A DNA stretch of 64,000 bases from Neobacillus mesonae (GTDB lineage: Bacteria > Bacillota > Bacilli > Bacillales > Cytobacillaceae): the NCBI RefSeq assembly GCF_001636315.1, contig NZ_KV440949.1, positions 1,404,703-1,468,702 of the forward strand, read 5' to 3'. This document shows, piece by piece, positions 2,959 through 63,498 of the stretch. Each line of letters opens with the position of its first letter. Position 1 is the first letter of the stretch. The translations under genes were made by a program, and so were the position numbers. The notes beneath the pieces are model-generated. The model was not told where the DNA came from. It ran no database searches and saw only the letters and a program-made list of their open reading frames with translations.

Positions 2959-3060
2959 TTCTTATCTTCCAGAGCATGCGCCCTGCTGGATGTGGCACCG
3001 TGTATAAAACCGGTTGCCGGGCATCATAGGGCCAGTTCCCTCCGCCGCTCTTGATAAGAA
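2959..3060 (-). promoter_or_regulatory. SAM-I (S-box) riboswitch upstream of metY
   Basis: Second S-box: minus-strand TTCTTATCAAGAGCGGCGGA, then GATGCCCGGCAACC, with P1 formed by TTCTTATC (3053-3060) and GATAAGAA (2959-2966). Same ligand and logic as the element before metN, but with an independent terminator. Confidence 0.94.
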
Positions 3061-56872: not shown

Positions 56873-59146
56873 TTAACTTTTCACACCTAAGCGCTCACGA
56901 ACTATATGTGTCGCTGTCACCATATTGGCTAAAGAGCGAACGGTTTCTTCCATCCCTCTAGTTTTTAATCCACAATCGGGGTTAATCCAGAATTGGTCCT
57001 TTTCAAGAGCCTTTAAACCATGTTCAATCACTTCGTTGATTTCTTCACATGACGGCACCCGCGGACTATGGATATCATAGACGCCAAGCCCGATTCCTTT
57101 ATGGTAGGCATTGTGATGGAAGGCGGAAACAAGCTCCCCATGACTTCGCGATGTTTCAATCGAGATGACATCGGCATCCAACTGGTCAATAGCTCCAATA
57201 AAATCATGGAATTCGCAATAGCACATATGGGTATGGATTTGCGTCATATCCGCAACGGAAGAGTTTGTCACCCGAAAGGCCTTTATCGCCCACTGTAAAT
57301 AATCATCCCATGCTGATTTCTTCAACGGCAGGCCTTCTCTCAATGCCGGTTCATCCACCTGAATCATTTTAATCCCTGCTGTCTCAAGAGCCTCCACTTC
57401 GTTTCTTAAAGCAAGGGCGATTTGAAAAGCTACATGCGACCGAGGCAAATCATCCCGGACAAAAGACCAGTTTAGAATTGTCACCGGACCAGTAATCATG
57501 CCCTTAACAGGTTTGTTAGTTAGAGACTGTGCGAAGACACTTTCCTTAACCGTCATTGGCTGAAGAAACTGAACATCCCCATAAATGACTGGCGGCTTTA
57601 CACAGCGAGAGCCGTAGGATTGCACCCAGCCGTTCTTGGTAAACGCAAATCCGCCTAATTTTTCACCGAAAAACTCAACCATATCCGTCCGTTCAAATTC
57701 ACCATGAACGAATACATCAAGGCCGATATCCTCTTGAATTTCAATCCATTTCCGAATTTCTTTTTGAATAAATTGATCATATTCTTCTGTCGTCAATTCG
57801 CCTTGCCGCCATTTTCTTCGCGCCTGCCGAACCTCTAACGTTTGCGGAAAACTACCAATAGTTGTGGTCGGAAGGAGCGGCAGGTTCCACGCTTTTTGTA
57901 TTTCCTGACGTTGTTCAAAGGAGGAACTACGCTGAACATCCTGAGAAATGAAAGCGGCAGCTGCTTCTTGAATTTCTTTTCTATTTCTATCCGCTGATTG
58001 GTTCAAGCGGGCAAGTGCTGTTTTAGATTGAGCAAATGGCTCTTCTCCCCCGTTCACAACGTTTTCCGCTAAGGAAACTATTTCTACTATTTTTTCATCA
58101 GCAAAAGCCAATACTTCTTTTACCGTCGGATTCAGCTCGTTTTCATAACGGACTGTAACAGGCACATGCAGCAGGCTGGATGAAGGCTGCAGCCATAAAC
58201 TTTCCTTTGGTACGATGCTCTTGAGAGTCTCGACAAGTTCCCTTTTTACCGATAAATCGGAGCGCCAAATATTCCGCCCATCAATTACACCAGCTCCAAG
58301 CACTTTATCCGTAGGAAATCCATGTTCTTTTACTGCTTGCAGATTCCCTTCCAAACCATGGACAAAATCTAAGCCAACCCCAGCAACCGGTAAATTCACA
58401 ACATCTTCATAATGCTCAACTGCGTCAAAATAGGTTTGCAGCATGATTCTAAGCTTCGGCACCGCTTCGTTCAACTGTTTATAGATATAGAGGACTGTTC
58501 TCATTTCATCTTTTGTAACTGATGTAACGAGAATCGGTTCATCAATTTGCACCCATTGTACTCCCTCTGCCGCTAGCTCTTGTAAAACTTGAATGTAAAG
58601 GGGAACAATTTGCAAAATAAGTGCCGGTAATTCTTTTGGTCCAAACCCTTTGGACAGCTTTAAAAACGTATAAGGACCCACGATGACGGGCTTTCCATCA
58701 ATCCCTAGCTTTTCTTTTGCTTCACGATAGGCATGCAGCGGCTTGTTTTCAGTCAGTGTTGGTTTCCGGTCACCCAGTTCCGGGACAATATAATGGTAAT
58801 TCGTGTTAAACCATTTGGTCATTTCACAGGCAACTGCCCTATCACTGCCACGCGCCATCGCAAAATAGGTTGAAAGCGGCACAGCACCATCCTCGTACTC
58901 ATATCTTTTAGGAACAAAGCCAAACATCACGGCCAAGTCAAGTATATGGTCATAAAAAGTAAAATCCCCTACCGGAATCAGATCAATGCCCGCATCCTTT
59001 TGTTTTTGTAAGTGGTTAAGGCGAATTTGTTCCATTTGTACTAGAAAATGGGACTCTGTTATTTTCCCTGCCCAATATCCTTCCAAAGCTTTCTTCCATT
59101 CGCGGTTTTCCCCAATCCTTGGGTACCCTAAATTACTGCTCTTCAT
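56873..59146 (-). CDS. metE: Cobalamin-independent methionine synthase MetE
   Basis: A 757-residue enzyme methylating homocysteine with 5-methyltetrahydropteroyltri-L-glutamate. Two similar barrels; zinc ligands in HTHMCYCEF (about 640-648) and the later DCGLKTR cysteine (about 725); the conserved IQVDEPALREGLPLK near 600. GAGGAACTTGAGAG precedes the ATG. Behind a cobalamin riboswitch and terminator, so it should be silent when B12 is available (a B12-dependent MetH is then expected elsewhere). Confidence 0.95.
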   Translation of the reverse strand: MKSSNLGYPRIGENREWKKALEGYWAGKITESHFLVQMEQIRLNHLQKQKDAGIDLIPVGDFTFYDHILDLAVMFGFVPKRYEYEDGAVPLSTYFAMARGSDRAVACEMTKWFNTNYHYIVPELGDRKPTLTENKPLHAYREAKEKLGIDGKPVIVGPYTFLKLSKGFGPKELPALILQIVPLYIQVLQELAAEGVQWVQIDEPILVTSVTKDEMRTVLYIYKQLNEAVPKLRIMLQTYFDAVEHYEDVVNLPVAGVGLDFVHGLEGNLQAVKEHGFPTDKVLGAGVIDGRNIWRSDLSVKRELVETLKSIVPKESLWLQPSSSLLHVPVTVRYENELNPTVKEVLAFADEKIVEIVSLAENVVNGGEEPFAQSKTALARLNQSADRNRKEIQEAAAAFISQDVQRSSSFEQRQEIQKAWNLPLLPTTTIGSFPQTLEVRQARRKWRQGELTTEEYDQFIQKEIRKWIEIQEDIGLDVFVHGEFERTDMVEFFGEKLGGFAFTKNGWVQSYGSRCVKPPVIYGDVQFLQPMTVKESVFAQSLTNKPVKGMITGPVTILNWSFVRDDLPRSHVAFQIALALRNEVEALETAGIKMIQVDEPALREGLPLKKSAWDDYLQWAIKAFRVTNSSVADMTQIHTHMCYCEFHDFIGAIDQLDADVISIETSRSHGELVSAFHHNAYHKGIGLGVYDIHSPRVPSCEEINEVIEHGLKALEKDQFWINPDCGLKTRGMEETVRSLANMVTATHIVRERLGVKS

Positions 59147-59289: not shown

Positions 59290-59492
59290 TTTACAGCGTT
59301 GTCGAAACAGGCAGGTCTCCTGACTTAAGGATCATTACCAGCCGCATACCTTCCCAATCATCCCGATTAGTGGTTTAAACATGCGTTGATTTCCCTTTTA
59401 CAGTGGCGGGACCGTGTCGGATTTACACCGAGCTTCCCTTTTCATCCTTGAACATAAGCATCCAAGGAACCTGTTCCCACTTATTCTATTAG
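59290..59492 (-). promoter_or_regulatory. Cobalamin (B12) riboswitch upstream of metE
   Basis: Minus strand shows the B12 box and core: AGGTTCC near the 5' end, AAGGGAAGCTCGGTGTAAATC, CGGTCCCGCCACTGTAA, and AAGTCAGGAGACCTGCCTGT near 59305-59325. It controls transcription through the downstream terminator. Exact ends are approximate. Confidence 0.93.
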
Positions 59493-61577: not shown

Positions 61578-61649
61578 TTTAGATCCCCCCCTTTAGATAA
61601 TTTTACCATTAGTGTTTTATAAAAGGGGGATAATTTGGGTTTTTAAATA

Positions 61650-61681
61650 TAAAAAAGACCAGCATTTTGAATGCTAGTCTT
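61650..61681 (-). terminator. ssrA terminator
   Basis: AAGACtAGCATT...AATGCTgGTCTT stem followed by TTTTTTATATTT on the minus strand, 18 bases after the tmRNA CCA end. Confidence 0.92.
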
Positions 61682-61698
61682 GTATTCCACCTTATGTA

Positions 61699-62342
61699 TG
61701 GTGGAGACGGTGGGACGTGCTCTTCCATGCTTTCGTCATGGCACTGACTATATCTTGAACCTGCTATCAATCAGGCAGGTCCCCCGGCGTCTTATGCGAA
61801 ATATATATTTACCTTTTTCGGCAGGATTTCGCATCCTAGTACTACCATTTAGAATGGCAGCCTATAAGTCGATACACGGCTGTTGGATTACTCCACATAC
61901 CGCTCGGCATTGCCTTATCGCATTTTTTGCGACTTAGGTTTCACCGATAAAGCCGGATTTTCACTTGTATGTTACCATACAAGGCGACTAAGTTATTAAT
62001 CGAACCCACGTCCAAAGATATCGGCACTTAAGCTTCTACGAGTGTAGTCGATATATTCGTGTTTCGCTGAGCCTTTTGCCTATCGACGGGCGGCCGGTCA
62101 GCTAGCCTGGTTGTTCTCTTCCTTCATCCTCAGGCGGTGGAATCCGGCGTAGCCTGCTAAAAGTGAGTCCGCTACCCTACCACACAGGCGATGGAGGGGC
62201 GAACCGCTTAGTGCTTAATTAGGCAGCTAAAGCGAAGTTGTTGTTAGTTTTGCCAGTTATTGGCTTTGACGTTTTAACGAGGCCGATCCCCTCGACTCGC
62301 AACCCAAGCTCGAACTACCCCTGTCGAATCCGTAGCGTCCCC
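61699..62342 (-). ncRNA. ssrA: tmRNA (ssrA), interrupted in the T-loop by an intron
   Basis: Rescues stalled ribosomes with SmpB by acting as tRNA-Ala and then as mRNA. The 5' end GGGGACGCTACGGATTCGACAG is at 62342. The tag frame (62222-62254, stop 62219-62221) gives A-GKTNNNFALAA, the first Ala coming from the charged tmRNA. The 5' half of the T-arm ends at 61999 (GTGGGTTCGAT); its 3' half resumes at 61715 (TCCCACCGTCTCCACCA, CCA encoded, end 61699). Joined, exon 1 (61999-62342, 344 nt) and exon 2 (61699-61715, 17 nt) make a 361-nt RNA with a perfect T-stem GTGGG/CCCAC and acceptor stem GGGGACG/CGTCTCC. Without splicing the tRNA domain cannot form. Confidence 0.95.
61716..61998 (-). mobile_element. 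Group I intron (283 nt) in the ssrA T-loop
   Basis: Inserted in the T-loop. The complete core can be drawn: P1 exon CGAU with intron GUCG (U.G at the splice site); P2 CTTGTATG/CATACAAG with GTAA loop; P3 CCGGC (61952-61956)/GCCGG (61784-61788); P4 UCGG/CCGA; P5 CCU/AGG plus GTCGC/GCGAT; P6a TGGA-GTAA-TCCA; P7 GACTTATA (61863-61870)/TATAGTC (61746-61752); P8 ACCTGC/GCAGGT; P9 CCATG/CATGG. Consensus words GTGAAACCTAAG, AAGGCAATGCCGAGC and AAGATATAGTC are present. Extra hairpins between P7 and P3 suggest subgroup IA. It ends in G. There is no homing endonuclease ORF. Confidence 0.9.
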
Positions 62343-62433
62343 ATTATAAAAGTGCTGATGATCAGCAAGAACGTTAGGAAACTGGCAAGTTGTTTGAGCA
62401 AAAGTTTCTATCGCTTATCTCAGCGACAAACTT

Positions 62434-62461
62434 ATTATAACATACTCAGTGAATTTTGCAA
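62434..62461 (-). promoter_or_regulatory. Probable ssrA promoter
   Basis: Minus strand TTGCAA (62456-62461), 16-bp spacer, TATAAT (62434-62439). Transcription would start near 62427, leaving a leader of about 85 nt to be removed by RNase P. Confidence 0.75.
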
Positions 62462-62488: not shown

Positions 62489-62956
62489 TTACATTTTCTG
62501 ACGCTCGCGGAAGGCACGTTCAATTTCACGCTTCGCTTCCTTCTTCTTCAGGTCTTCACGCTTGTCATAGTTTTTCTTACCCCTTGCAAGACCAATTAAA
62601 ACCTTACAGAAGCCATTTTTTAAATAAAGCTTTAATGGAATAAGTGCATAGCCGGATTCTTTAGCTTCTCCATATAGCTTATTAATTTCCTTTTTATGAA
62701 GCAGCAGTTTCCGTGTTCGTAATGGATCATGATTATATCGGTTTCCCTGCTCATATGGGCTGATATGCATTCCGAATAAATCGGCTTCTCCATTTTGAAT
62801 CCTGACATAAGAATCCTTTAAATTAACTCGCCCGGCACGAATGGACTTGATTTCGGTCCCTTGGAGGACGATGCCGGCTTCGTACGTTTCTTCGATAAAA
62901 TAATCATGCGTCGCCTTTTTATTTTGGGCAACTACCTTTCCTACTCCTCTTGGCAT
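62489..62956 (-). CDS. smpB: SsrA-binding protein SmpB
   Basis: A 155-residue partner of tmRNA: OB-fold core with [21 protein letters not shown], the [14 protein letters not shown] tmRNA-binding strand and the basic C-terminal tail ([18 protein letters not shown]) that reads the empty mRNA channel. Its gene lies just upstream of ssrA, 147 bp apart, on the same strand. Confidence 0.96.
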
Positions 62957-63068: not shown

Positions 63069-63498
63069 ACACAAGATTACTTTTACGTGACCTTGCACTG
63101 CTTTTTTATGCTCGTCCGGGCACGTAGAACACTTCTAAATGACCTTATACTGCTATTTCATGCTCGTTCGGGCACGTAGAACACTTCTATGTGACCTGAC
63201 GCTGCTTTTTCATGCCTGTTCGGGCACGTAGACCGCTTCTATGTGACCTTGCGCTGATTGTTCATGCCTGTTCGGGCACGTAGACCCATTATACGTGACC
63301 TTACACCACTTTTTTATGCTCTTTCGGGCACGTAGAACCCTTATACGTGGCCTTACACCACTTTTTTATGCTCGTTTGGTCACGTAGAACCCTTCTACTT
63401 GACCTTGCGCTGCTTTTTCATGCCTGTTCGGTCACGTAGAACCCTTCTACGTGACCTTGCACTGCTTTTTTATGCTCGTTCCTGCACGTAGACACCTA
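63069..63498. repeat. 52-bp tandem repeat array, eight or more registers without indels
   Basis: CACGTAG recurs at 63121, 63173, 63225, 63277, 63329, 63381, 63433 and 63485, always 52 bp apart; a diverged copy starts at 63069. Each unit holds a CACGTAGAA...TTCTACGTG inverted repeat, ACCTTGCRCTGC, a T-run and ATGCTCGTTCGGG. It fills the rnr-smpB gap. Confidence 0.93.

What the first reader, a model, noticed from the sequence alone, without database searches (positions are those of the whole stretch)
61699..62342. tmRNA gene split by a group I intron in its T-loop
Seen directly: exon 1 ends ...GTGGGTTCGAT and exon 2 starts TCCCACCGTCTCCACCA; between them are 283 nt that fold into a full group I core with a U at the 5' splice site and a terminal G. 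Removing it gives a 361-nt tmRNA with all stems intact. Group I introns at this spot in tmRNA are, as far as I recall, rare and known from few Firmicutes; this could not be checked here. If splicing is inefficient or regulated, it would gate ribosome rescue, because the precursor cannot be charged with alanine.
Basis: partly seen in the sequence, partly recalled or inferred. Interest (0 to 1): 0.93.

Follow-up and report, generated by a model that had tools for sequence, protein, structure and literature searches.

The report
Self-splicing intron in tmRNA gene
In this Bacillus-like bacterium the gene for the RNA that frees stalled ribosomes is interrupted by a 283-base group I intron that is predicted to cut itself out of the transcript; the arrangement is already described and common among its relatives, so it is an ordinary member of a known kind.

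Summary
On the minus strand ssrA runs 62342..61699 and is split after T-loop nucleotide 6 by a 283-nt intron (61998..61716). Joining the exons gives a 361-nt tmRNA that ARAGORN recognises (tag GKTNNNFALAA), 97% identical to the naturally intronless tmRNA of Neobacillus paridis. It is the only ssrA found in the genome. The group I fold is supported by 73 aligned relatives: 96.3% of cells paired, 48 of 94 pairs with changes on both sides, 0 of 500 shuffles as good. P7, the splice-site U-G pair and the terminal G do not vary. The rarity claim is wrong: PMC11915505 counts 883 unique intron-form tmRNAs in 21 phyla, mostly at this T-loop position, and I find the intron in 44 of 61 genomes of the genus and 103 of 193 of the family. 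The gating idea has no support: no known aptamer nearby, and acceptor stem and CCA lie outside the intron. Verdict: real, probably splicing, mostly inherited and often lost; a known kind, low interest. The one odd lead is intron remnants beside intronless T-arms in three relatives.

The parts
61699..62342 (-). pre-tmRNA gene (ssrA), exon 1 + intron + exon 2, 644 nt
   Evidence: RF00023 154.8 bits; boundaries
61999..62342 (-). exon 1 (344 nt): acceptor 5' strand, tag frame, pseudoknot region, T-stem 5' strand GTGGG and T-loop TTCGAT
62219..62254 (-). tag reading frame GKTNNNFALAA + stop
   Evidence: ARAGORN on the spliced sequence
61716..61998 (-). group I intron, 283 nt, no homing endonuclease frame (longest stop-free stretch 73 codons)
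   Evidence: RF00028 45.7 bits; covariation
61985..62002 (-). P1: exon CGAU + UAA paired with UUAGUCG; U-G pair at the 5' splice site
   Evidence: the four CGAU pairs are the same in 70 of 70 distinct sequences
61949..61957 (-). P3 5' strand
   Evidence: 5 of 8 P3 pairs change on both sides
61783..61791 (-). P3 3' strand
61867..61872 (-). P7 5' strand U(C)GACU with bulged C: predicted guanosine-binding site
   Evidence: invariant in 70 of 70
61745..61749 (-). P7 3' strand AGUCA
   Evidence: all 5 P7 pairs invariant
61716..61716 (-). terminal G of the intron
   Evidence: G in 74 of 74 introns kept; the one C is L087, a false call made of two tandem intronless genes
61699..61715 (-). exon 2 (17 nt): T-loop nt 7, T-stem 3' strand, acceptor 3' strand, CCA
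62434..62461 (-). promoter-like site TTGCAA-16-TATAAT upstream of ssrA
   Evidence: consensus scan only; 2 such sites found in the region, 1.5 expected from shuffles
61655..61681 (-). terminator-like hairpin after ssrA
   Evidence: consensus scan; 5 such sites in the region, 1.0 expected
62489..62956 (-). smpB, partner gene directly upstream
   Evidence: Pfam SmpB 219 bits

Best explanation
The only tmRNA gene found in this genome is interrupted in its T-loop by a 283-nt group I intron that is predicted to splice itself out, which would restore a 361-nt tmRNA. Predicted course: exon bases CGAU pair with the intron's guide (P1, with U-G at the splice site); a guanosine bound in P7 attacks after that U; the freed 5' exon then attacks after the intron's terminal G. 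The 5-bp T-stem probably holds the two exons together for the second step, because P10 could form only one pair here. Shown by sequence and comparison: boundaries, core fold, covariation, single copy, empty site in relatives. Inferred: splicing itself, and that the intron is close to neutral, mostly inherited with its host gene, often lost, and without an endonuclease of its own.
For: Boundaries and 361-nt product; spliced form recognised with tag GKTNNNFALAA and 97% identical over 361 positions to the intronless N. paridis tmRNA. One RF00023 match over the cut-off in the genome. Covariation in 73 aligned sequences, 70 distinct: 96.3% of 6556 cells paired (shuffled 91.5, slid 35-43), 48 of 94 pairs with double changes (shuffled 24.1, 0 of 500), including 5 of 8 P3 pairs. 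P7 5' strand with its bulged C invariant in 70 of 70; L9 GAAA in 70 of 70; L2 is GUGA in 3 sequences and all 3 have CU:AG in P8, against 3 of the other 67 (Fisher p 0.0004, not corrected for relatedness), a tetraloop-receptor switch known from group I introns (recalled). T-stem pair 2 switches UA/CG across exons, 54 and 16 of 70. Intron and smpB distances correlate, Mantel r 0.58, 0 of 2000 permutations (72 rows). The C. [quoted passage not shown]
Against: No RNA data: splicing in this organism is not shown. RF00028 stays below its gathering score (45.7 against 50). P10 is one base pair. 17 of 61 genomes of the genus do without a full intron; the two rows nearest to the window by smpB (L121, L118) are intronless; and on a smpB tree the state changes at least 35 times among 148 rows, so inheritance is far from purely vertical, or the one-gene tree is poor.
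Confidence: 0.93

Rival explanations
1. Splicing is slow or regulated and sets the level of working tmRNA, so the intron gates ribosome rescue.
For: Single-copy gene, so any splicing block would remove tmRNA; the intron's 3' block is kept over much of the order, 91 of 397 genomes (one of these, G548, is a weak 28-nt match). Allosteric group I introns exist (c-di-GMP, C. difficile; passage in PMC3984707).
Against: No riboswitch family next to the intron in the sensitive Rfam scan; no extra conserved domain in the alignment besides the usual stems; 17 of 61 congeners live without a full intron; among the papers listed no title or abstract start speaks of such regulation (lists capped: 25 of 105 and 20 of 39 shown).
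Confidence: 0.04
2. The gene is a decayed copy: the intron no longer splices and the tmRNA is not made.
For: RF00028 below the gathering score; no RNA evidence.
Against: No second ssrA over the cut-off; P7, P9.0, the splice-site pair and the tmRNA exons look intact; smpB intact upstream.
Confidence: 0.02
3. The intron is a recent arrival by horizontal transfer rather than an inherited resident.
For: Patchy presence: at least 11 changes among 37 genus rows on a smpB tree; the two nearest rows by smpB lack it; the 74 introns kept sit at one exact site; median pairwise intron difference 17% against 29% for smpB.
Against: Intron and smpB distances correlate (r 0.58); among intron-bearing rows L092 is nearest both by intron and by smpB; 13 of 17 intronless genus genes keep U at T-loop nt 6, against 9 of 58 intronless genes among named Bacillales, as loss from an intron-bearing ancestor would leave; G025, second nearest by smpB, still has an intron remnant; no endonuclease frame, and no similar DNA in the phage and plasmid collections.
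Confidence: 0.15

Closest known systems
Intron-form tmRNA genes, T-loop position 7 (Williams 2002, recalled and not held; Nawrocki, Petrov and Williams 2025, PMC11915505)
   Same: Same gene, same subsite (between loop nt 6 and 7, -1 U, terminal G), mean length of the founding set 293 bp against 283 here, mostly Bacillota, no endonuclease in about 96% (36 of 883 have one)
   Different: No difference found; whether this very sequence is in that database was not checked
Clostridium botulinum tmRNA group I intron (PMC2729099, passages)
   Same: 287-nt intron, 338-nt 5' exon, oligonucleotide CGAU for P1, described as self-splicing
   Different: Another class of Bacillota (recalled); its sequence was not fetched or compared
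c-di-GMP-controlled group I intron of C. difficile (PMC3984707, passage)
   Same: Group I ribozyme in a bacterial transcript
   Different: That one has an aptamer upstream and sits in a 5' leader; no known aptamer was found here

Membership tests
[quoted passage not shown]
   U-G in 70 of 70 distinct sequences; terminal G in 74 of 74 introns kept
Group I intron | P4-P6 and pseudoknotted P3/P7 core | tested here: met
   Covariation over 94 pairs; P3 5 of 8 pairs with double changes; P7 invariant, which says nothing for or against its pairing
Group I intron | Guanosine-binding G-C pair with bulged base in P7 | tested here: met
   UCGACU in 70 of 70; role recalled from the td intron
Group I intron | Score at or above Rfam RF00028 gathering threshold | tested here: not met
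   45.7 of 50 bits, E 2.4e-10; a curators' cut-off of one broad model, not a structural feature
Group I intron | Guanosine-initiated self-splicing | not testable with these tools
   needs RNA
Intron-form tmRNA | Intron within the T-loop at position 7 of a full tmRNA gene | tested here: met
   loop TTCGAT|T; RF00023, and ARAGORN on the spliced form; position numbering from PMC11915505
Intron-form tmRNA | Joining the exons restores an uninterrupted homologue | tested here: met
   361 nt, 97% identical to L009
Subgroup IA | P7.1/P7.2 hairpins between P7 and P3 | tested here: inconclusive
   Both hairpins present, with double changes in 3 of 8 and 7 of 9 pairs; the subgroup definition is recalled and no subgroup models were on hand
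Homing intron | Encodes a homing endonuclease | tested here: not met
   283 nt, longest stop-free stretch 73 codons in six frames; no profile search of that stretch was run
Allosteric (riboswitch-controlled) group I intron | Ligand aptamer joined to the intron | tested here: not met
   No riboswitch family in 61600-62420 at E up to 10; an undescribed aptamer is not excluded

The most novel reading that the evidence does not exclude
Splicing of the tmRNA intron acts as a switch for ribosome rescue: conditions that slow ribozyme folding, such as low magnesium or GTP, would leave unspliced precursor and lower working tmRNA in the many Bacillales that carry it.
Probability: 0.04. Interest if true: 0.8.

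Novelty: new member of a known kind. Interest (0 to 1): 0.22.

Why it matters
It settles an annotation: the ssrA of this genome is not called by ARAGORN and only partly matched by Rfam, yet very probably intact. It also shows that the intron form is the majority state in its genus (44 of 61 genomes) and that intron-bearing and intronless relatives differ at one exact site, a ready-made natural comparison for anyone who wants to test whether a ribozyme inside ssrA costs or regulates anything.

Tried and rejected
Second ssrA making this a pseudogene: one match over the cut-off; the other 17 weak matches (15-32 bits, cut-off 47) were taken to be tRNA genes by their score and span and were not examined.

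Mobile carrier: blastn of the intron with short flanks found nothing at E up to 1e-5 in the phage or plasmid collections. A 16-base core pattern matched 93 viral contig stretches; of the 80 held, 1 had a GGTTCGA within 450 bases upstream and none had a tmRNA exon 2 after it.

Attachment-site idea: I suspected that integrating elements use the intron's 3' end plus exon 2 as their identity block, because remnants lie downstream of uninterrupted T-arms in relatives. Against it: the breakpoints differ (last 40-41 intron bases in G025 and G191, about 204 bases, from intron nt 80, in G082), and a 75-nt query over 193 family genomes found no genome with both a full gene and such a remnant (up to 4 candidate places per genome were scored; second matches in 3 genomes are weak ones of about 27-31 nt). 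For it: one order genome (G232) has a 61-bp exact repeat made of the last 14 intron bases, exon 2 and terminator, 1721 bases apart, but three frames between the copies matched no Pfam family. G289 looked like another remnant in the order survey but holds a full intron. Left open, not claimed.

Corrected errors: the first Mantel test (r 0.187) was spoiled by one row (L101) put out of frame by a stop in its matched stretch; with that mended r is 0.58. The first translation of smpB was out of frame by one base and was not used. While checking this report I found that G082, first counted as an intron bearer, has an intronless tmRNA followed by an intron remnant, so the family count is 103, not 104.

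Rows dropped before counts: of 76 gene calls, L087 (two tandem intronless genes, false call) and L091 (the window again) were dropped, leaving 74; L256 (425-nt intron) was left out of the alignment, leaving 73. Of 44 loci fetched for order and family introns, 6 (L247, L265, L268, L269, L270, L273) were not parsed by my script and were not used. Of the 80 named loci, 17 have the intron, 58 an uninterrupted T-arm, and 5 (L022, L029, L038, L083, L088) no readable tmRNA in the fetched stretch; L023 counts among the 17 but was not parsed. Only a part of the family and order matches was inspected base by base; the others are counted by their BLAST match (nt 9 to 276 or more for the 103, the 3' block alone).

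Full report
What is there. On the minus strand the window carries a frame with an S1 domain (probably the end of rnr), then smpB, then ssrA. ssrA is 62342..61699. Its T-arm is broken after the sixth loop base: GTGGG-TTCGAT, then 283 bases, then T-CCCAC-CGTCTCC-ACCA. Of the two boundary placements that give the same 361-nt product, only one ends the intron in G with a U before it. Rfam's tmRNA model scores 154.8 bits although it cannot bridge the gap. ARAGORN finds nothing in the window but finds a complete tmRNA with tag GKTNNNFALAA once the intron is taken out. The product is 97% identical over 361 positions to the uninterrupted tmRNA of Neobacillus paridis (L009, whose SmpB is 94% identical to the window's), so the empty site exists in nature. 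The acceptor stem reads G1-C72, G2-C71, G3-U70, G4-C69, A5-U68, C6-G67, G7-C66, with encoded CCA (direct reading; that G3-U70 is the alanine identity pair is recalled). That the host is a Neobacillus is inferred from the nearest named SmpB.

Copy number. The whole genome (5.8 Mb, 2 contigs) has one tmRNA match over the cut-off and two group I matches: this one (45.7 bits) and one in recA (53.4 bits).

Is it a group I intron? RF00028 gives E 2.4e-10 on the 821-base stretch but 45.7 bits, under the gathering score of 50. I therefore tested the fold by comparison. From named Bacillales loci next to smpB (16 introns), genus genomes (19 further introns), and fetched family and order loci (38 introns) I kept 74 introns including the window's (dropped rows are listed under Tried and rejected). 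73 were aligned by sequence alone (A1). The structure was drawn on the window sequence and counted on the alignment. Of 6556 cells 96.3% pair, against 91.5% in shuffles and 35-43% when slid; 48 of 94 pairs show changes on both sides (shuffles 24.1, sd 2.2, 0 of 500). P3, the long-range half of the catalytic pseudoknot, has double changes in 5 of 8 pairs, with 11, 30, 22, 2 and 7 cells so changed; its last pair, however, fails in 34 of 70 sequences. P2 (6 of 8 pairs), P7.2 (7 of 9) and P8 (5 of 7) covary too. P7 never varies, which neither supports nor refutes its pairing, but its bulged C and G-C pair are those of the guanosine site in the td intron (recalled). Weak spots: P7.2a pairs in 75.7% of cells, the innermost P5a pair in 73.1%, and the pair next to the P1 loop fails in 22 of 70. 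Because the structure comes from one of the sequences, the slid controls favour it somewhat. Tertiary contacts also fit: L9 is GAAA in 70 of 70; L2 is GUAA or GCAA in 67 and GUGA in 3; the P8 receptor is CC:GG in 64 and CU:AG in 6, the latter including all 3 GUGA cases.

How it most likely works. Shown: boundaries, fold, single copy, empty site. Inferred: the exon bases CGAU pair with the guide (P1, U-G at the splice site); guanosine in P7 cuts after the U; the 5' exon then joins exon 2 after the terminal G, which is placed by P9.0. Only one P10 pair (first exon 2 base with the base before the wobble G) is possible, so the T-stem itself, formed between the two exons and switching UA to CG in 54 and 16 of 70 sequences, is the likely splint. 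The C. [quoted passage not shown] In that paper the full C. [quoted passage not shown]

How common. At E up to 1e-10 the intron DNA is found in 45 of 61 genus genomes, of which 44 match over nearly the whole intron and one (G025) over 40 nt; and in 106 of 193 family genomes, 18 of 25 genera, of which 103 match over nt 9-276 or more and three (G025, G082, G191) are remnants. A 75-nt 3' query finds 91 of 397 genomes of the order (one, G548, a weak 28-nt match) and 12 of 398 of the class. All 17 genus genomes without a full intron have a tmRNA that the model spans in one piece; three of them have two copies. PMC11915505 (abstract, passages, first part of the Results and reference list seen) counts 883 unique intron-form tmRNAs, most at T-loop position 7 and that group in 21 phyla, founding mean length 293 bp, 36 of 883 with an endonuclease. 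The first-stage belief that these are rare does not hold.

Inheritance. Intron distance follows smpB distance (Mantel r 0.58, Spearman 0.52, 0 of 2000 permutations, 72 rows), and L092 is nearest to the window by both measures among intron bearers. Yet the two rows nearest by smpB overall, L121 and L118 (G025), are intronless, and the state changes at least 35 times on a quick smpB tree of 148 rows and 11 times among 37 genus rows; a 468-column tree is imprecise, so these are probably overcounts. T-loop base 6 is U in every intron-bearing gene parsed (74 of 74). Among intronless genes it is U in 9 of 58 named loci but in 13 of 17 genus genes, and on independent pairs the two traits go together in about 8 of 16 and never oppose (median p 0.008). 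That direction follows partly from splicing itself, since intron-bearing genes need the U. Frequent loss from an intron-bearing genus ancestor fits best; repeated gain at a U-bearing site is not excluded.

Remnants. In three relatives the 3' part of an intron-bearing gene (part of the intron plus exon 2) lies downstream of an uninterrupted T-arm: 40 nt of intron about 112 nt after a whole intronless tmRNA in G025; about 204 nt of intron about 75 nt after a whole intronless tmRNA in G082; 41 nt of intron about 190 nt after a 3' tmRNA fragment in G191, whose intact gene is on another contig. This looks like displacement of intron-bearing genes by incoming intronless ones, perhaps with integrating elements; that is inference.

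Gating. Nothing supports regulation: no known aptamer, no unexplained conserved domain, and congeners without the intron. The lists returned by the literature searches (capped) show no title or abstract start on regulated tmRNA splicing; that library lacks most subscription journals, and Williams 2002 and Mao 2009 are not held.

Verdict. Real, correctly located, very probably a working self-splicing intron; a new member of a known kind. Interest is low.

Noticed in passing
L284 (G000:C1:4598000-4604000), also L089: recA of the same genome is interrupted twice: by a group II intron (RF02004 and RF00029 matches) coding a 625-aa reverse transcriptase (Pfam RVT_1), and by a group I intron (RF00028 53.4 bits) further on, with RecA pieces between and after. 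Group I introns in Bacillus recA are known (PMC3984707, passage); both kinds in one recA was not looked up beyond the search listing (12 of 27 papers shown).
   Followed up: partly
L131 / L118 (G025), L139 (G082), L132 / L238 (G191): In three relatives a 3' piece of an intron-bearing tmRNA gene (40, about 204 and 41 intron bases, plus exon 2) lies about 112, 75 and 190 nt downstream of an uninterrupted T-arm (whole intronless tmRNA in G025 and G082, a 3' fragment in G191). The pieces in G025 and G191, of different genera, begin within one base of each other at AGATATAGTC; unexplained.
   Followed up: partly
L243 (G232:C10), minus strand 2011 and 3732: A 61-bp exact direct repeat (last 14 intron bases, exon 2 and terminator) flanks 1.7 kb downstream of an intron-bearing tmRNA, as an attachment site would; three frames between the copies match no Pfam family.
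   Followed up: partly
L034 and L087: Two tandem intronless tmRNA genes about 1.1 kb and 0.7 kb apart in Peribacillus huizhouensis and Gottfriedia acidiceleris; three genus genomes (G024, G031, G037) also have two tmRNA matches each, on separate contigs.
   Followed up: no
63080-63492: A 52-bp unit repeated about 7.9 times (83% matches) between the S1-domain frame and smpB, with GGGCACGTAGAA / CTACGTGACC halves that could form hairpins.
   Followed up: no
1351-1456, 2959-3060, 59293-59489: Two SAM riboswitches and one cobalamin riboswitch, all minus strand; the cobalamin one lies just upstream of a cobalamin-independent methionine synthase gene at 56873-59146.
   Followed up: no
window, ssrA: ARAGORN does not call this intron-form tmRNA gene, nor any of the 17 intron-bearing named loci, so ssrA may be reported missing in such genomes.
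   Followed up: yes
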